A stretch of 64,000 nucleotides of DNA, from the NCBI GenBank assembly GCA_913061265.1, contig CAJXVS010000005.1, positions 124,001 through 188,000 of the forward strand, read 5' to 3'. Under the pieces are notes generated by a model. That model made no database searches, was not told where the DNA came from, and saw nothing but the letters and a program-made list of their open reading frames with translations. Position 1 is the stretch's first letter; each line of letters opens with the position of its first letter. The position numbers and the translations under genes were made by a program. Shown one piece after another: positions 4,227-51,568 of this stretch. Source of the DNA: an uncultured Halobacteriovorax sp. GTDB taxonomy: Bacteria > Bdellovibrionota > Bacteriovoracia > Bacteriovoracales > Bacteriovoracaceae.

Positions 4227-5111
4227 CTAGTCGATCAATTTCTTTAACTCTTTAACTTTTTTAATCTTGAAGACTTTCTCGTCTCCTCCATCATTAGAAA
4301 CTCTGTTGCTTACCTGGCAAAACTGAGTTGCAGATCTTACGTAGTCTCTAGCACCTTGAACAAGTATTCCTAGAACTTCACCAGTGTTTTCGTCAAAGAC
4401 AGGTGAGCCTGAGTTACCACCATAAGTATCTAGGTTGGCGTAGAAGAAGTTGATTCTCTTTTTCTTAATAGTTGCTCCGCCTGCAATCTTTAAGGGAAGC
4501 CCAGAAGGATGTCCGATAACAGCAATCTCTGTTCCTGTCTTAGGATTACCTTTCATCTTTAACTTTAAAGGCTCTCTGCCTTCAACAGCTCTATCAAGTC
4601 TAACAATGGCATAATCTTTTGTGGCAAAGATTCCCATCGTTAATTTTTGTCCTAGGACTTCAGTACATGAATAGACATTCTTTTTCGCAATCTTTTCCGT
4701 ACCGGCAGTATAATCAAAGACCCATTTATGGCCTGTACAATCATTCATGTCAGTAACACAATGACCGGCAGTAACAAGGATGTCCTTAGCTACTAAGAAT
4801 CCTGAACAACGAGGTAGAGTTGTTTGTTCAGAAAATCTCTCTTCTTTACAAATACCCATGTCTCTTAAATTTCTTTTTGGAAACCCAAAGAACTCATCAT
4901 CTAAGCTGTATAGGTTACTATTTCGAACTTGCCCAGCAACACTTTTTGCAAGGTTTACTAACTGTGCATCAGCATGATTAGCAACATCTTCTCTGTTGTC
5001 TACGCCGTAGATTAACTTGTTTTGGTTAGCCCCTGCGATAGCAAAGTTAGATGTAAGACCTGTAATGATAAGGGCCTTAGTGGCCATCAAAGCGATTTTA
5101 GTCATGCTCAT
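4227..5111 (-). CDS. Secreted trypsin-fold serine protease (S1, V8-like), copy 1
   Basis: 294 residues from the chosen ATG at 5111, preferred over an upstream in-frame start because a purine-rich site (AGGGGGAAAA) sits just before it and a signal peptide starts there. The catalytic triad is visible: His117 (VTAGHC), Asp166 (DYAIV) and Ser234 (GNSGS). GNSGS rather than GDSGG places it near the V8/glutamyl-endopeptidase branch, but the position equivalent to V8 His184 is a leucine, so Glu specificity is not implied. The mature N-terminus carries the motif YGVDNR, shared with two other proteases at 44.8 and 46.4 kb. It probably acts outside the cell or in the periplasm. A clear terminator follows. 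Confidence 0.9.
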   Translation of the reverse strand: MSMTKIALMATKALIITGLTSNFAIAGANQNKLIYGVDNREDVANHADAQLVNLAKSVAGQVRNSNLYSLDDEFFGFPKRNLRDMGICKEERFSEQTTLPRCSGFLVAKDILVTAGHCVTDMNDCTGHKWVFDYTAGTEKIAKKNVYSCTEVLGQKLTMGIFATKDYAIVRLDRAVEGREPLKLKMKGNPKTGTEIAVIGHPSGLPLKIAGGATIKKKRINFFYANLDTYGGNSGSPVFDENTGEVLGILVQGARDYVRSATQFCQVSNRVSNDGGDEKVFKIKKVKELKKLID

Positions 5112-5210
5112 TTTTCCCCCTGGAATTCTGAATATGGGGTGAACATACAACTAAATAGCACCCTGCGCAATATTGGACGTACTAATTACACAGGGCCGTA
5201 AGTGCCTAAA

Positions 5211-13531: not shown

Positions 13532-14359
13532 ATGAAACTTCTTAAGAATTCTCGCATTATTTTGTTTATTACCCTTTGTGCTTTTAGTGGCCCTGGGTTT
13601 ACTAAGACCTTTAATTGTAAATTAAAGGTGGCTGGACTAATTGAAGGCTTTGTCTTTGATACTGAAAAGCATGGCAGCGGAACTGGAGGAAGTTTTAACG
13701 ACTTCGTTTATTTCTTAGGGATTAGAGACAAGAAAATTTCGGTAAAGATTCAAAACACAAAGAATGCTTCTCAAGCTCAGTCTATGTATTCACTTTCGAG
13801 AGATGAGTTTGAGATTTCTCTAACTCCAGGTTGGGATTTAGCCTGCACTAAGGAAAAAGAAATCAAGCCGGCCGTAGAGATTAAAGAAGTTAAGAAGCTA
13901 GTTCTTGATGATCTAACCCCACTTGAAGAATTTCAAGCAGACATAAGCTTTACGGCTCAGTCTGCTATCAAGGTGCGCTATAATGTTTCAACGGCGAAGC
14001 AAAGAATGCGGGCCGTGATCTTTCAAAAAGGAAGGCTTTATACAACTGATGATGATGTCAAAAGAGATCTAAGTGGTAATTGGTGTATCTTGCAGGTGAA
14101 CTTAGAGTTGGATCAAGACACCATGATCAAAGAAGGTCATAACTGGCAAACCGTTCAATACAATACCTTAAACAATTCCTCGAGCCACACAGTCTATGCT
14201 TGGAGCTTCGTGGATCCCGCTCAGGGAAAGGTCTCTCAAAGATTCAAGCGCTATGTGCCTTTTAATATGGCCTGCCAAATTAAAAAAGGAGAGGTCCTCA
14301 ACCGTAAGATGTGGCGCGAAATTACAGGTGATCGAGTAAAGCTTTACTATAATCCCTAG
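13532..14359 (+). CDS. Secreted protein of unknown function
   Basis: 275 residues from ATG 13532. That start puts a signal peptide (MKLLKNSRIILFITLCAFSG) at the N-terminus; an upstream TTG start at 13496 would add 12 residues before it. The ribosome binding site is weak for either. The mature part looks beta-rich, with a few scattered cysteines (FNC, LAC, NWC, MAC), which fits a disulfide-bonded exported protein. It is followed after 13 bases by the repeat protein at 14373, so the two are very probably cotranscribed. Family and function unknown. Confidence 0.65.
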   Translation: MKLLKNSRIILFITLCAFSGPGFTKTFNCKLKVAGLIEGFVFDTEKHGSGTGGSFNDFVYFLGIRDKKISVKIQNTKNASQAQSMYSLSRDEFEISLTPGWDLACTKEKEIKPAVEIKEVKKLVLDDLTPLEEFQADISFTAQSAIKVRYNVSTAKQRMRAVIFQKGRLYTTDDDVKRDLSGNWCILQVNLELDQDTMIKEGHNWQTVQYNTLNNSSSHTVYAWSFVDPAQGKVSQRFKRYVPFNMACQIKKGEVLNRKMWREITGDRVKLYYNP

Positions 14360-14372
14360 TCAGGAGGCTTTA

Positions 14373-14756
14373 ATGAAATCACTTTTAATCACACTACTTT
14401 TAGTACTTAGCGCTAATGCCAATGCAGATATCTTTCTTTCAAGTTGTCATAATTATGCTAACGGAAGAGACGCCGTAGGTTATAGTTACCAATTTTGTCT
14501 CAATAATAATTTCAGGGCCATTGAAAGAGAAGTAGAGGGAAACCTCTTTCTTAGCAATTGTTCTAATTATGGTGAGACTGTCTCATTTTCTTTCACTAGT
14601 TGTGTCCAAAGAAATTTTAGAGAGATTGAAAGGGCCCTAAGAGCTACAAATGTTTTCTTAAGTTACTGCTCAAACTTTAGTAGAGATAGCTTAGATTTTA
14701 GTTTTACGAATTGTGTAAATAGCAATTGGCGTTCTGTTGAACGTGCTCTTCGCTAA
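14373..14756 (+). CDS. Secreted protein made of three ~36-residue Cys repeats
   Basis: 127 residues with a signal peptide ending in ANANA and a strong ribosome binding site (AGGAGG) upstream. The whole mature protein is three tandem repeats, roughly residues 20-57, 58-93 and 94-127. Each reads FLSxCxN(Y/F), then a variable serine-rich stretch, then SFxxC(V/L)xxN(F/W)RxxER. Each repeat therefore carries two cysteines and ends in a basic, amphipathic helix-like stretch. I know no named domain with this pattern. It closes the secreted-unknown run begun at 12256 and its stop interlocks with the convergent lytic transglycosylase. Confidence 0.8.
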   Translation: MKSLLITLLLVLSANANADIFLSSCHNYANGRDAVGYSYQFCLNNNFRAIEREVEGNLFLSNCSNYGETVSFSFTSCVQRNFREIERALRATNVFLSYCSNFSRDSLDFSFTNCVNSNWRSVERALR

Positions 14757-15496
14757 GGATTGAATTGATTGAGGGCGTGAGCCCTTTTCATGACCTTTTC
14801 AGCATAGATTTGGGCCCTACCGTCAGGTTCACCATTGTACCTAGCAAGGGCCCTTAAAAAGAGCTCCTCTTTAGTCACATCATTTCTCTCTTGCCAGAGT
14901 TGAGATTGTCTTCCCCAGTAGAGTTTTAACAAAAGAGCGCCATAAGCTAGGCTTAATGCTGGGTCTCTTTTGATGATCTTCTTTTGATAGGCCTTTCTTT
15001 CATCCTCATTTAAATGAAGGGTTCGTCTCCAAAGAGGCACCCACTCAGGGTCGATACAATCTGTGAAGATAATCTTCCAGAACTTTATCGTAGAGGTGAT
15101 AGCTCCGTGCTTACCGCGTTCACCTAGTTGATCGTGAACCTCTCTTACTCCAATATTAGTAAATTGAGTGAAGCCAACTGCCCCAGTATTACTGGTGGCA
15201 TTATTATTAAAGAAACTCTCGGTATGAATAAGCCCTGTAAGGATATGCGGATCGATACCAAAGCAAGCACTTGTATGAAGGATCTCTTTTGCTAGTCTAT
15301 TGTTATCGATAAGTTCTTGAGACCTACCTGAGGCCATCTTTGAAATATACTTTGTGAGGTTTGCTTCCGTCGGGGCCACATCGAAAAGCATGGCTTCTGG
15401 CTCGAAGTACCTATGCGGCACTCTAAATCCGGGATCAGATGCTACTGCATTGTTTAATAGAAAAAAGGCCACGAAGCCTATGAATTTAAAGATCAT
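14753..15496 (-). CDS. Lytic murein transglycosylase (SLT domain), exported
   Basis: 247 residues with a signal peptide (MIFKFIGFVAFFLLNNAVAS). The SLT lysozyme-like domain is recognisable: catalytic Glu93 in LIHTESFF, then GAVGFTQF, and near the C-terminus the substrate-groove block ALARYNG. Such enzymes cleave the MurNAc-GlcNAc bond of peptidoglycan with formation of a 1,6-anhydro end. In a predator it could serve either the cell's own wall growth or prey wall remodelling; the sequence does not decide. A 7-bp inverted repeat lies just upstream of the start (15510-15534). Confidence 0.88.
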   Translation of the reverse strand: MIFKFIGFVAFFLLNNAVASDPGFRVPHRYFEPEAMLFDVAPTEANLTKYISKMASGRSQELIDNNRLAKEILHTSACFGIDPHILTGLIHTESFFNNNATSNTGAVGFTQFTNIGVREVHDQLGERGKHGAITSTIKFWKIIFTDCIDPEWVPLWRRTLHLNEDERKAYQKKIIKRDPALSLAYGALLLKLYWGRQSQLWQERNDVTKEELFLRALARYNGEPDGRAQIYAEKVMKRAHALNQFNP

Positions 15497-16887: not shown

Positions 16888-17433
16888 TTATTTAGTCTTC
16901 TTCTTAGCTTTCGTGGTCTTAGAAGTCTTTTTTGTAACCTTCTTTGCGGTCTTCTTTGCTACTTTTTTTTCAGTCTTCTTAGCCACTTTTTTAGCGGTTT
17001 TCTTCGCTACTTTCTTCTCAGTCTTTTTGGCTACTTTCTTTTTAGTCTTCTTATCAGCATCGCCCTTCGTCACTTTATCAACGGCCTTAGCAACCTTCTT
17101 AATGGCGGCCTTTGCTTTAGGGTTCTTCTTAGCTGTTTGTTCTGCTTTTTTTACAAGATCTTGACCAGTGGCGTAAAGCCTCTCTTGGGCAGTTCCTTGA
17201 AGTGATTTTAATTCGTTAACTAATTGAGCATAGAAGCCTTGAATCTTTTTCTTTTGGATATTGGCCTTATCGTATTGTGAGTTGAATATTCTATTTAATT
17301 TTTGATACTTCTCTTCGTTAATTAACTTAATTTGAGAGAGTACTTTTTGGCACTTCTCTTTGAATGCCACTGGGTCAAAGGCCTTACCTTTCTTGTCTTT
17401 CTTTTGCTTACTTAAAAAATCTGGAAATGCCAT
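16888..17433 (-). CDS. Lysine-rich histone H1-like protein
   Basis: 181 residues in two parts. Residues 1-120 look helical, mixed charge. Residues about 120-181 are a tandem array of KKVAKKT(E/A)K units ending in a Lys/Thr tail, like the C-terminal tails of eukaryotic histone H1 and bacterial HC1/HC2-type nucleoid proteins. Such tails bind and condense DNA. A role in nucleoid compaction, perhaps in a non-growing attack-phase cell, is inference. The N-terminal domain is not one I recognise, so it could instead be a surface or phasin-like protein with a basic tail. Confidence 0.7.
   Translation of the reverse strand: MAFPDFLSKQKKDKKGKAFDPVAFKEKCQKVLSQIKLINEEKYQKLNRIFNSQYDKANIQKKKIQGFYAQLVNELKSLQGTAQERLYATGQDLVKKAEQTAKKNPKAKAAIKKVAKAVDKVTKGDADKKTKKKVAKKTEKKVAKKTAKKVAKKTEKKVAKKTAKKVTKKTSKTTKAKKKTK
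16890..17075 (-). repeat. Tandem array coding KKVAKKTxK units
   Basis: Degenerate 24-27 base units rich in AAGAAA/GTAGCC on the coding strand repeat about seven times within the histone-like gene. They encode alternating KKVAKKTEK and KKVAKKTAK blocks. Such arrays often change copy number between strains. Confidence 0.7.
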
Positions 17434-44748: not shown

Positions 44749-44837
44749 AAACCGAGTATTCCTTATAGATGCGAGGGGTCAATTGCTGGCATATTCTATC
44801 CTATTAGATAGTGTGCCTCAAGAGATCGGGGAGATTT

Positions 44838-45842
44838 ATGAAAACACTTATTACCACTATTACCTTACTAGCCTGTATGAACGCCTTTGCCACAGATAAG
44901 GTCATCTACGGAAACGACGACAGAGACCATTTAAATGAAAGTGAAATGGCAGCCTATAAAGAGCTGGCCCGAAGCACTGCTGGTATGATTCCAACATCAA
45001 AGTTAGAAAGTCAGTTTGACGGACTCTTAACACTTATTAAAGGCAGAACATTAGAGCAAACTCAAAGAGTCTGTAAGGATGAGAAATTTAGCCAAGTCAT
45101 GACGGCCGCCAATTGTAGTGGGTTTCTTGTTGGTAAAAATAAAATAGTAACGGCAGGGCATTGTATTAAAGATGAGTTCGCTTGTGCCAATAATAAATGG
45201 GTCTTTGATTTTAGACAAGATCTTGTCCCCGAAGGCGAGGATCAACTCTTTGTAAATTCTGATAATGTTTATGGTTGTAAGAAGATCATCTCTCGCGCTT
45301 TAAGCCGTAATAGTCAGAATGATTACGCTCTTATTGAACTAGATAGAGATGTAACAGACAGAGAAGTTCTTAAATTTAGAACTGAAGGAAAGATTGAAGA
45401 TAATGATCCATTAGTTGTTATTGGTCACCCATCAGGGCTTCCAACAATTATCGCAGGTGGAGCTAATGTTAGAACAAATACCAATGATTTTTTCTTTCAA
45501 GCTAACCTAGACACTTTTGGTGGCAACTCAGGATCAGCTGTCTTTAATGCAAAAACAAATACTGTTGAAGGAATCCTTGTAAGAGGGGAAACCGACTATG
45601 CTTATGACTCTGAATCAGGTTGTTACAGAGTCTTTAAATGTAAAGATGATGAATGCCGAGGGGAAGATGTAACAAGAATCACGGTTATCCCTGAGCTTGT
45701 TCCTGGAATGACTCCTGTTGAGCCAATCGCCACTGAAGTAGAAGAGGAAGAAAATCCTTTTGCTTTCCCAGGATTTTCCTTTGATGGCATTGGTGAGCTT
45801 GACTGTAATCCGGTTATCCCAGGTGATTGTTTAGATTTCTAG
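44838..45842 (+). CDS. Secreted trypsin-fold serine protease (S1, V8-like), copy 2
   Basis: 334 residues from ATG 44838, which has GGGGAG upstream and starts the signal peptide; an upstream GTG would precede it. Triad: His in VTAGHC, Asp in NDYALI, Ser in GNSGS. After the signal the mature start reads YGNDDR, as in copies 1 and 3. The body closely resembles copy 3, including the ILVRGETDY and CRGEDVTRI segments. It differs by an extra C-terminal tail of about 50 residues that is acidic and proline-rich and ends with two cysteines. The tail may be a localisation or inhibitory extension; this is inference. Confidence 0.9.
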   Translation: MKTLITTITLLACMNAFATDKVIYGNDDRDHLNESEMAAYKELARSTAGMIPTSKLESQFDGLLTLIKGRTLEQTQRVCKDEKFSQVMTAANCSGFLVGKNKIVTAGHCIKDEFACANNKWVFDFRQDLVPEGEDQLFVNSDNVYGCKKIISRALSRNSQNDYALIELDRDVTDREVLKFRTEGKIEDNDPLVVIGHPSGLPTIIAGGANVRTNTNDFFFQANLDTFGGNSGSAVFNAKTNTVEGILVRGETDYAYDSESGCYRVFKCKDDECRGEDVTRITVIPELVPGMTPVEPIATEVEEEENPFAFPGFSFDGIGELDCNPVIPGDCLDF

Positions 45843-46442: not shown

Positions 46443-47330
46443 ATGACATTAAGGACGATTTCAGCATTATTGGTTTCTATGACTCTTAGCTTTTCAGTAA
46501 TGGCAGGCGACAAAGTTGTTTATGGTGATGATGATAGACTAGACCTATTCGAAGCAACGAATGCTTTACACCTTGATCTTGCAAAATCAACAGCTGCAAT
46601 GATCTCACACTCAAAATTAACAGATAACGGAGACGGTACTACTTCAATCAGTGGTGGAGCTCTTTCTTCAAGAGGAATTTGTAAGTCAGCTAAGTTTGCT
46701 GATCAAATGACTGCTGCTAATTGTTCAGGTTTCCTAGTAGGTAAAGACCTTCTCGTAACGGCCGGACATTGTATCACTAGCATGTCAGCTTGTAAGAGCA
46801 GCGCTTGGGTATTTGACTTCGCAGTTGAAACTTCAGATGACGATGCTAAAGCAGTTCCAACAACTTCAGTATATAAGTGTGTTGAGATCATCTCTAGAGA
46901 TCTTAACCGTGGAACAAAAGATGATTACGCTCTAATCAGACTAGAAAGAAATGTTGATGACCGTGACGCTCTAACAGTTCGTACTTCAGGAAAAGTTGCT
47001 GATGGTACAAAACTTGTTGTTATCGGACACCCTACAGGTCTTCCTTCAAAGATCGCAGCCGGTGCAGTAGTTAGAAATAACAACGGACCAGTATTCTTTA
47101 ACTCAAACCTTGATACTTTTGGTGGTAACTCAGGATCAGCAGTATTTGATTCAGAAACTGGAACAGTAGAAGGGATCCTAGTTAGAGGTGAGACTGATTA
47201 TGTATACGATAGCACTAGAGGATGTAGAGTTCCTAAGCAGTGTACAAACGAAGGTTGTCGTGGTGAAGATGTGACTCGTATCACAAACATCAAAGCCCTA
47301 ATGACTCTAGTAGAAGAAAACAACAAATAA
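46443..47330 (+). CDS. Secreted trypsin-fold serine protease (S1, V8-like), copy 3
   Basis: 295 residues with a signal peptide ending VMA and the mature start YGDDDR, the third copy of this motif in the window. Catalytic residues: His (VTAGHC), Asp (DDYALI) and Ser (GNSGS). The C-terminal GCRGEDVTRI block matches copy 2, so copies 2 and 3 are closest relatives and probably a local duplication. It has its own upstream sigma-54-like site and two terminators downstream, so it is likely expressed alone. The codon pattern looks like that of a highly expressed gene (few rare alternatives), which is an impression, not a calculation. Confidence 0.92.
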   Translation: MTLRTISALLVSMTLSFSVMAGDKVVYGDDDRLDLFEATNALHLDLAKSTAAMISHSKLTDNGDGTTSISGGALSSRGICKSAKFADQMTAANCSGFLVGKDLLVTAGHCITSMSACKSSAWVFDFAVETSDDDAKAVPTTSVYKCVEIISRDLNRGTKDDYALIRLERNVDDRDALTVRTSGKVADGTKLVVIGHPTGLPSKIAAGAVVRNNNGPVFFNSNLDTFGGNSGSAVFDSETGTVEGILVRGETDYVYDSTRGCRVPKQCTNEGCRGEDVTRITNIKALMTLVEENNK

Positions 47331-47609: not shown

Positions 47610-49145
47610 ATGAAGAACTTAAGCTACTATGCATGGCTTGGCCTTTTTTTATGGGTCATGGCCTCTTATTCCTCGGCCGCTGTTGGCGGCATGAAACCCA
47701 GACTAATTGTTAAGCGAAAGATCCCTGCGAGGGGAGTCATGCGCGAGGCCTTCAAGGTGTCCGATAAAGAAGTGCATTCTTTTGATGATGCCCGTGCCCT
47801 AGAGGAAGCGAAAGCTCGCTTCGAAGGCGATAGCGAGATTGAATGGGTTGTTGAGGATAAGGCCATGGCCCACTTTTTTGAACCAGGAGATAATGGAACA
47901 ACTCAAGATCAACTTTGGTTCTCACAGTGGCATTCTCATGATGCTTTAAGTGGAATCAATCTTCCGGCCGCTTGGGATCTCACCTTTGGTGAAGAAGTGG
48001 TTGTGGCCGTTGTTGATACTGGCATCACAAATCATTCGGATTTAAATTCAAAGATTCTTTTTGGGGCCGACCTGGTAACAGATCCTGCTATGTCTAATGA
48101 TGGGGACTCTAGAGATAATGACCCCTCTGATCCAGGGGATTGGGTTACGGCAGGAGACCCTTGTTATAATGGAAGCTTTCATAGCTCAAGCTGGCACGGC
48201 ACCCATGTGGCCGGAACAATCGCGGCAAAAACTGGAAATGGAACTGGAGTAGCAGGAATTAGTTTTAACGCTAAGATTGTTCCCGTAAGAGTGCTTGGCA
48301 AATGTGGGGGCTGGGCCTCTGATATTGCTGATGGTATTAAGTGGGCGGCAGGAATTCCTGTGTCTGGAGTTGCTAACAATCCAAATCCCGCCCGCGTGAT
48401 TAATCTAAGCCTTGGTGGCCGAGGATCTTGTTCGGCCATGATGCAAGAGGCAGTAGACGGCGCCAATGCAGCCGGCTCTTTGGTTGTAGTAGCGGCAGGG
48501 AATAGTAATCAAAATATTGATTTTAATCATTACTCCCCAGCTAACTGTAAGGGAGTTGTCACAGTGGCTTCAACAGATCATGAACAAAACAGAAGCTTCT
48601 TCTCTAACTATGGAGAGTTCATCGATATTGCCGCTCCTGGTGGCGGCGGGGTTGGGGTTATGTCTACCATTAATAGTGGAAGCACAACTCCTTCAACTGA
48701 AGATTATAAGCAGATGAGTGGTACTAGCATGGCAGCTCCTCATGTAACGGGTGTTGCCGCTTTAATGGCAGGAGTGAATCCTGATCTCTCAAACTCTCAG
48801 TTAAGACAAATCCTTATTGATTCTGCCCGCAGCTTTGATTCAAGTAGTAATTGCGATAGCTCCATCTGTGGCGATGGATTATTAGACGCTGAAGCAGCAG
48901 TAAATATGGCCATGAGTACAGTAGGGGATCCAGACTTTGTTTTTAGTGAGCCTTTTTTAGGAAGTGACTCTGGCAATAGAACTAATACTTGGATCACGCC
49001 TTCTTATGACGATGAGGGCGGTGCTTGCGGTACGGTAGATATGGATGGAGGCAGAGGAGGTCCTGGCGGCTTTATGTTAAGCCTTCTCTTTGGACTACTT
49101 TTAAGTATCCTAGCGCCACACCTCAGGATTCACAAAAGCTGGTAG
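47610..49145 (+). CDS. Secreted subtilisin-like protease (S8) with prodomain and CTERM-like tail
   Basis: 511 residues: signal peptide to about 24, a prodomain of about 70 residues, then the S8 domain with Asp136 (VVDTG), His196 (HGTHVAG) and Ser373 (GTSMAAPHV), and the oxyanion Asn in AAGNSN. Four or more cysteines in the catalytic domain suggest disulfides. The C-terminus is distinctive: one Cys, a Gly-rich stretch (GGRGGPGG), a hydrophobic helix of about 18 residues, then a short basic tail. This is the three-part layout of CTERM sorting signals. It is preceded by a sigma-54 promoter and overlaps the convergent dehydrogenase by 36 bases. Confidence 0.92.
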   Translation: MKNLSYYAWLGLFLWVMASYSSAAVGGMKPRLIVKRKIPARGVMREAFKVSDKEVHSFDDARALEEAKARFEGDSEIEWVVEDKAMAHFFEPGDNGTTQDQLWFSQWHSHDALSGINLPAAWDLTFGEEVVVAVVDTGITNHSDLNSKILFGADLVTDPAMSNDGDSRDNDPSDPGDWVTAGDPCYNGSFHSSSWHGTHVAGTIAAKTGNGTGVAGISFNAKIVPVRVLGKCGGWASDIADGIKWAAGIPVSGVANNPNPARVINLSLGGRGSCSAMMQEAVDGANAAGSLVVVAAGNSNQNIDFNHYSPANCKGVVTVASTDHEQNRSFFSNYGEFIDIAAPGGGGVGVMSTINSGSTTPSTEDYKQMSGTSMAAPHVTGVAALMAGVNPDLSNSQLRQILIDSARSFDSSSNCDSSICGDGLLDAEAAVNMAMSTVGDPDFVFSEPFLGSDSGNRTNTWITPSYDDEGGACGTVDMDGGRGGPGGFMLSLLFGLLLSILAPHLRIHKSW

Positions 49146-50196: not shown

Positions 50197-50215
50197 ACCT
50201 TTGCAAGGAGGCAAA

Positions 50216-51568
50216 ATGAAACTTATAAAAACACTTTTAGCCACAGCATTTTTAGTTAGTGCTATGGCCCAGGCGACGACTCTCGCAGTTATCGATTCTG
50301 GAACTGATACTCTTCACAAAGATCTACTAGCTAGTCTATGGATCAACCCAATTGAGGGTGAAATCTCTAATGACCGTGATGAAGATCAAAATGGTTATCA
50401 AGATGATATCTACGGATGGAACTTCGCTGAAGGAAACAATCTTGTTATCGATCCTAAGTACAGAAACTCTCTTACTCCAGACATCCGTAAGTTCTTCGCC
50501 CTTCAGGCAAAGTCTTTTTACGGAACAATTACTGAAGAAGAAAGAGAATGGATCAAGACAAAGCTTGGTGAGCAAGAATTCCTTAAGTCAATTCAGGTTT
50601 ATGGAAACTTCATGCACGGAACTCACGTAGCTGGTATTACAGTTGCTAATAACCCTACGGCTAAGATTCTTTCAGTTAAGTTAATTCCAACTGAAGTTGC
50701 TCTTCCTGGTCAAAAAGAAATTGAAATGGCCGCTTCTCAAAAAGGTCTTGGACTGACTCTTGCTAAATTAGCTCTAGGTCAACTTGCTAAGGCTCAGATT
50801 ACTCAGATGAGTGAGATTGCAGCTTACGTAAACTCTCATAAAGCTAGAGTGGCTAACGGATCTTTCGGAACTGGTTACCCACAAGCAAGAATGATTGCTG
50901 AGTTAATCGGTGGACCATTCAAGCTTACTGAAGAAGAAATTGTTGAAGTTGCTAAGCATTTCCTAGGAACTCTTAATAAAGAAGGCGTACACTTTGTTGG
51001 TGAAGCTCGTAATACTCTCTTTGTATTCGCAGCTGGTAACGATGGTCTTTCAAATGATGAGTTTGGATCATTCCCGACTAATATTGATGCTGACAACGTA
51101 ATCTCTGTTGCTGCTACTATCGGTTCAGGGAAGCTTGCTGGTTTTTCTAACTTCGGTAAGAAGACTGTAGATGTTGCCGCTCCTGGAGTTGCTATCAATT
51201 CAACTGTTCCAGATAATATGTACCTAAAGGTTTCAGGAACTTCTCAAGCGGCTCCTTACGTGGCCAATATTGCTGCAAGAATCTCTGAAACAAATAGCGA
51301 GCTTCTAGCGATCCAAATTAAAAAGATCATTATGAAGACTGTTGATAAGAGACGTAGTTACGAAGCCACTGTGAAAGCAGGCGGAGATGTAAATATGGAT
51401 CGTGCAGTTCAAGCTGCAGAAAATACACTTAAAATGAACCTTGATGAAGCTATTGATTTATCTCATAAGCAAATCAAGACCACGGATTCGGAAAAAGGTC
51501 TTTCCAAGGATGGAGCTCTGTACGAAGGTTATGTATTGCCGATGCCTAGCCCATTTGTTTTAAAGTAA
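50216..51568 (+). CDS. Secreted subtilisin-like protease (S8) without a prodomain
   Basis: 450 residues from ATG 50216 (strong AAGGAGG upstream; an in-frame start at 50201 adds 5 residues before the signal). The signal peptide runs to about 20 and the first catalytic residue, Asp27 (VIDSG), follows almost at once. His134 (HGTHVAG), Asn in AAGNDG and Ser343 (GTSQAAP) complete the site. An acidic NDRDEDQNGYQDD loop after Asp27 looks calcium-binding. The I9-type prodomain that most subtilases need for folding is absent. The spacing between Asp and His is long, with a Glu/Lys-rich insert. Monocistronic, with its own terminator. Confidence 0.9.
   Translation: MKLIKTLLATAFLVSAMAQATTLAVIDSGTDTLHKDLLASLWINPIEGEISNDRDEDQNGYQDDIYGWNFAEGNNLVIDPKYRNSLTPDIRKFFALQAKSFYGTITEEEREWIKTKLGEQEFLKSIQVYGNFMHGTHVAGITVANNPTAKILSVKLIPTEVALPGQKEIEMAASQKGLGLTLAKLALGQLAKAQITQMSEIAAYVNSHKARVANGSFGTGYPQARMIAELIGGPFKLTEEEIVEVAKHFLGTLNKEGVHFVGEARNTLFVFAAGNDGLSNDEFGSFPTNIDADNVISVAATIGSGKLAGFSNFGKKTVDVAAPGVAINSTVPDNMYLKVSGTSQAAPYVANIAARISETNSELLAIQIKKIIMKTVDKRRSYEATVKAGGDVNMDRAVQAAENTLKMNLDEAIDLSHKQIKTTDSEKGLSKDGALYEGYVLPMPSPFVLK

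What the first reader, a model, noticed from the sequence alone, without database searches (positions are those of the whole stretch)
14373..14756. Unnamed 36-residue Cys repeat
Three tandem FLSxCxN...SFxxC..NFRxxER units make up the whole mature protein. Two cysteines per unit and a basic helix-like end suggest small disulfide-stabilised modules that may bind a surface ligand. I know no domain with this pattern.
Basis: partly seen in the sequence, partly recalled or inferred. Interest (0 to 1): 0.5.

Follow-up and report, generated by a model that had tools for sequence, protein, structure and literature searches.

The report
Unnamed three-unit cysteine protein, predatory bacteria
A small, apparently exported protein made of three copies of a cysteine-containing unit belongs to an unnamed family seen mainly in the Bacteriovorax group, which includes predatory bacteria; computer models give it a well-defined fold, but what it does is unknown.

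Summary
The repeat is real. ORF 14373-14756 encodes a signal peptide and three similar units (38, 36, 34 aa); 0 of 5000 shuffles reach the observed unit similarity. It is a family: a profile finds it in 41 of 368 genomes of the phylum, 38 in the window's own family. A DNA pattern over a species-genome collection gave 28 loci; 22 encode a member, 17 of them titled Bacteriovoracaceae, Bacteriovoracia, Bacteriovorax or Halobacteriovorax, including cultured predators DB6_IX and BSW11_IV. The readable intact members have three units; all but one (L096) keep six cysteines.

AlphaFold2 gives the three units one well-defined fold (pLDDT 94.5, pTM 0.88; similar with a divergent member first): in each unit one Cys in coil, one in a helix. 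For the window protein no Pfam or NCBIfam model passes its cut-off. Foldseek finds nothing significant in the PDB. VIA-align's top rows, the BARA domain of Vps30 (Z 7.6) and a human PI3KC3-C2 chain (Z 5.9, tied with the next row), are too weak for membership.

Best guess: a disulfide-stapled, non-enzymatic binding protein of the periplasm or prey interface. No ligand is known.

The parts
14362..14367 (+). Shine-Dalgarno sequence AGGAGG
   Evidence: read by eye
14373..14756 (+). whole gene, 127 aa
14373..14426 (+). Sec-type signal peptide MKSLLITLLLVLSANANA (cleavage by eye; no lipobox Cys)
   Evidence: no signal-peptide program was available
14430..14543 (+). unit 1 (Cys 25 and Cys 42), Cys spacing 16
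14544..14651 (+). unit 2 (Cys 63 and Cys 77), Cys spacing 13
14652..14753 (+). unit 3 (Cys 99 and Cys 114), Cys spacing 14
13532..14359 (+). upstream exported-looking 275-aa protein of unknown family, 13 bases before the gene; possible operon partner, adjacent only in the three genomes of this genus

Best explanation
An exported, disulfide-stapled protein built from three homologous units, each a coil segment carrying one Cys followed by a helix carrying the second, that fold together. It most likely acts without catalysis, as a small binding or plugging protein in the predator's periplasm or at the predator-prey interface. Shown by sequence: three units, conserved Cys pairs, a signal-peptide-like start, more synonymous than non-synonymous change in the few pairs that could be measured. 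Shown by model only: one fold with three helices. Inferred: oxidation in the periplasm, disulfide pairing (probably within a unit), a binding role, any role in predation.
For: Six Cys columns are invariant in 29 members. Of 22 members read from named contigs, with the starts I chose, 18 have exactly six Cys and 4 a seventh inside the signal peptide. Cys-to-Cys spacing within a unit is 13-16 residues in 69 of 69 units. DsbB and VKOR homologues over the curated cut-offs in the genome. Two AlphaFold2 models, pLDDT 94.5 and 94.6, pTM 0.88 and 0.86, three helices each in matching places. The best conserved columns are Cys, Asn (64 and 68 of 69 units), Ser, aromatic, and Arg (54 of 69); no His, Lys or acidic column comes near that. 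dN/dS 0.07-0.30 in the 4 of 10 closest pairs where it could be computed, one of them with saturated dS 3.9.
Against: No ligand, expression or localisation data. Neighbours differ between genera, so context gives no function. One paralogue (L096) has lost one of the six Cys. Only 38 of 126 genomes of the order have a unit match (29 of 73 of the good-quality ones), so it is not needed for predation in general. Cys-Cys distances in the models could not be measured, so pairing is a guess. The two models share the same 23 sequences and are not independent.
Confidence: 0.45

Rival explanations
1. A secreted inhibitor or self-protection protein, for instance against the predator's own secreted proteases or wall enzymes: small, disulfide-stapled, non-catalytic, with a conserved core and variable remainder.
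For: An SLT-domain transglycosylase is an immediate neighbour in 4 of the 23 loci compared: convergent in the window, L065 and L066, and downstream on the same strand in L067, a different SLT protein that BLAST did not cluster with the first. The window also holds three trypsin-like and two subtilase genes.
Against: Three of the four SLT cases are one genus. The other neighbours scanned are diverse, among them LepB-type signal peptidase, GroEL, SerRS, aldolase, transporters, and many without a Pfam family (42 neighbours, 19 families).
Confidence: 0.15
2. A small effector released into the prey during attack.
For: Exported-looking; concentrated in a lineage with known predators; present in the cultured obligate predators DB6_IX and BSW11_IV.
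Against: No toxin or effector relative reached a cut-off; pI varies from 4.2 to 9.4, unlike a membrane-active cationic peptide; no match in most genomes of the same order.
Confidence: 0.12
3. Independent ligand-binding repeats strung together.
For: The units are alike in sequence, and units of one protein resemble each other more than units paired across proteins (0.456 against 0.414; 0 of 20000 permutations).
Against: No intact member read has another number of units; no frame with more than three unit matches in 126 genomes; the three-unit models are confident.
Confidence: 0.12
4. A divergent fibronectin type I domain (Pfam PF23003, Fn1_2).
For: Sub-threshold matches in 17 of 29 members, best E 7e-4, and in 11 of 23 mature sequences.
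Against: 18.4 bits against a cut-off of 27 in the window protein; the model is helix plus coil without strands, whereas fibronectin type I modules are beta-sheet (recalled).
Confidence: 0.02

Closest known systems
BARA domain of Vps30/Atg6 and Beclin 1 (PDB 3vp7; probably 9zpc chain D)
   Same: A beta-alpha repeated domain; [quoted passage not shown] Top VIA-align row on both models: 3vp7, Z 7.6, 109 residues, rmsd 3.4, next row 4.4; human PI3KC3-C2 chain D, residues 270-445, Z 5.9, 90 residues, rmsd 3.2. That chain D is Beclin 1 is my inference from the residue range.
   Different: No strands in our models, smaller, secreted and Cys-paired, 10-13 % identity. On the second model the next row (alpha-actinin, Z 5.2) is tied and 3vp7 does not appear. 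Z is under the 8 (13 for helical proteins) below which the tool warns of a merely common arrangement.
Pfam PF23003 Fn1_2
   Same: Weak sub-threshold match
   Different: Below cut-off, and the predicted fold is helical
Small secreted disulfide-rich proteins in general (recalled as a kind)
   Same: Signal peptide, paired Cys, short length
   Different: Fixed triplication, helix in each unit, concentrated in one lineage

Membership tests
BARA (Apg6/Beclin) domain | beta-sheets together with alpha-helices, three of each | tested here: not met
   three helices but DSSP finds no strands in either predicted model
BARA (Apg6/Beclin) domain | fold match | tested here: inconclusive
   top VIA-align row on both models, Z 7.6 and 5.9, the second tied with the next row; Foldseek E 3.6 for 9zpc_D
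BARA (Apg6/Beclin) domain | sequence match to the family's Pfam model | tested here: inconclusive
   no such family among the 25 of 34 listed at E up to 10 for 23 members; 9 were not shown
BARA (Apg6/Beclin) domain | part of a coiled-coil subunit of a PI3-kinase complex | tested here: not met
   stand-alone 127-aa bacterial protein with a signal peptide
Fn1_2 (PF23003) | score above the curated cut-off (27 bits) | tested here: not met
   18.4 bits full length, 19.2 bits mature, window protein
Fn1_2 (PF23003) | beta-sheet fold | tested here: not met
   models are helix and coil; that fibronectin type I is a beta fold is recalled
The unnamed family described here | three units with C-x13-16-C, Asn two after the first Cys, mostly C-[VI]-N-x-N-F at the second Cys, behind a signal peptide | tested here: met

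The most novel reading that the evidence does not exclude
A previously undescribed fold: a pseudo-threefold, disulfide-stapled (coil-helix)3 domain invented in the Bacteriovoracia, whose variable outer surface recognises something in the prey envelope, evolving under selection that keeps the three units alike.
Probability: 0.15. Interest if true: 0.7.

Novelty: new variant of a known kind. Interest (0 to 1): 0.42.

Why it matters
An exported protein of a predatory lineage with no family name here gains a clean signature, a confident model and members in cultured predators, so structure and function can be tested directly. If the fold is confirmed it adds a small three-unit disulfide scaffold, of interest for repeat-protein evolution and as an engineering frame.

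Tried and rejected
Weak second hit in the same genome (G000 C7, E 0.04, inside a 1496-aa frame): taken as chance. A recalled lead that the C..N..C pattern resembles a cyanovirin-type (CVNH) domain was dropped: not among the Pfam families shown (25 of 33, 25 of 34) and the model is helical; the absence excludes nothing. Six of the 28 pattern loci (L069, L070, L071, L074, L075, L084) gave no family protein and were dropped as chance. L022 was left out of alignment A1 because its frame has no ATG; one search shows a stop inside that match, so its signal peptide may be broken. G088's single unit match is half a unit in a 72-aa frame with no second unit beside it: a remnant or chance. L106 and L108 showed no unit, so two of the five out-of-family rows fall away. 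Tblastn of the window protein against phage and plasmid records: no match; one exact pattern in viral contigs: none. PDB sequences: none and one row at E 0.93. Foldseek: lowest E 1.4 and 2.0 in PDB, 0.55 in viral models. Codon sharing between units (523 of 1040 identical-residue pairs, 491.7 expected) gives no strong sign of recent gene conversion. Upstream gene: homologues in 27 of 126 genomes, beside this gene only in the three genomes of the window's genus (coordinates). Literature: five searches on these bacteria or on Cys-rich proteins (listings) and passages of PMC11656739 showed no such family; subscription papers are mostly not held. Searches were for BARA; passages of PMC7326497 and PMC8235419 were seen.

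Full report
Observation. The ORF 14373-14756 is as described: 127 aa, a signal peptide, then three similar Cys-pair units and nothing else. Units share 43, 41 and 58 % identity; the summed alignment score is 255.5 against at most 51 in 5000 shuffles. The unit profile finds three places in the 3.97 Mb genome, all in this gene.

Family. The mature window sequence against 129 genomes of the order gave 62 genomes at E up to 1, many of them weak rows with stops. A profile of 29 members found 44 of 368 genomes of the phylum at E up to 0.01; a broader profile of 28 found 41 of 368 at E up to 0.001: 38 in the window's family (one of them, G095, only as broken pieces) and 3 in two other families. The unit profile found 38 of 126 genomes of the order, one of which (G088) proved to be half a unit. 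A DNA pattern over the species-genome collection gave 28 loci, of which 22 encode a member: 17 titled Bacteriovoracaceae, Bacteriovoracia, Bacteriovorax or Halobacteriovorax, two Oligoflexia, one 'Bdellovibrio sp.' bin, one Deltaproteobacteria, one 'bacterium'. That pattern finds 22 of 29 close members' loci but, apart from three repeats of known proteins, none of 13 distant loci (3 of 16), so outside this phylum only close relatives were looked for. DB6_IX and BSW11_IV are cultured obligate predators (passages of PMC4511183). The data sets overlap heavily and should not be added up.

Anatomy. In 69 units from 23 proteins: both Cys in all, by construction of the segments; Asn two after the first Cys in 64; Asn four after the second Cys in 68; Phe next to it in 61; Arg ten after the second Cys in 54; Cys spacing 13-16. 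Whole proteins, free of that construction: 18 of 22 have six Cys, 4 have a seventh within the signal peptide. In distant members and paralogues, 16 ORFs of 15 loci (L090-L104; L100, L101 and L103 repeat proteins of the earlier set) have three unit matches, some of them weak singly; L096 has lost one Cys; L105 is broken by stops; L107 is a doubtful relative; L106 and L108 showed nothing.

Structure. AlphaFold2 on the mature window protein with 22 relatives: pLDDT 94.5, pTM 0.88, helices at mature residues 19-35, 54-70 and 91-108, no strands. With the L062 member first: pLDDT 94.6, pTM 0.86, helices 14-30, 48-64 and 82-100. By position, the first Cys of each unit lies in coil and the second in a helix. 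Foldseek against PDB: best E 1.4 and 2.0; against viral models 0.55. VIA-align's top row: for the window model Vps30/Atg6 BARA (3vp7), Z 7.6, 109 of 109 residues, rmsd 3.4, next row 4.4; for the L062 model human PI3KC3-C2 chain D, Z 5.9, 90 residues, rmsd 3.2, with alpha-actinin at 5.2 tied and 3vp7 not listed. Residues 270-445 fall in the BARA range given for Beclin 1 (266-450, passages of PMC8235419). I claim a possible likeness of arrangement only.

Evolution. dN/dS was 0.07 to 0.30 in the 4 of 10 pairs where it could be computed; the others gave no value. Units at the same position in different proteins average 0.43-0.47 identity, and the nearest unit of another protein has the same position in 52 of 69 cases, so the three-unit layout is old. 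Units within a protein are more alike than units paired across proteins (0.456 against 0.414, 0 of 20000 permutations); relatedness is not corrected for.

Context. In the window's genus the gene follows an exported-looking 275-aa protein by 9-13 bases and faces an SLT transglycosylase. Another SLT protein follows the gene in L067. Of 42 neighbours scanned, the window's upstream gene not included, SLT is the commonest family with 4, then signal peptidase 3, chaperonin 2, a transporter family 2, and 15 families once. The genome has DsbB and VKOR homologues above the curated cut-offs.

Function. Export, Cys pairs, a triplicated body and no conserved catalytic set point to a binding or inhibitory protein; this is inference. 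The patchy spread within the order argues against a core predation role.

Noticed in passing
window 13532-14359 (+): Exported-looking 275-aa protein without Pfam or NCBIfam match at E up to 10; homologues in 27 of 126 genomes of the order.
   Followed up: partly
window 14753-14756; L067:2700-3314: The gene's stop overlaps by 4 bases the convergent end of an SLT transglycosylase gene (14753-15496, -); a different SLT gene follows the family gene in L067. Whether this means anything was not resolved.
   Followed up: partly
window 4227-5150 (-), 44811-45842 (+), 46443-47330 (+), 47610-49145 (+), 50201-51568 (+): Three trypsin-like (PF13365) and two subtilase (PF00082) genes in one 64 kb window.
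   Followed up: partly
window 16888-17433 (-): Lysine-rich protein with a repeated KKVAKKTEKKVAKKT tail, histone-H1-like by eye.
   Followed up: no
L093 (two copies); G061 (three places): Paralogous copies of the family, in L093 side by side.
   Followed up: partly
L107: A possible distant relative with three C-x12-C units and about 65 further residues after them; profile E 0.005 only.
   Followed up: no
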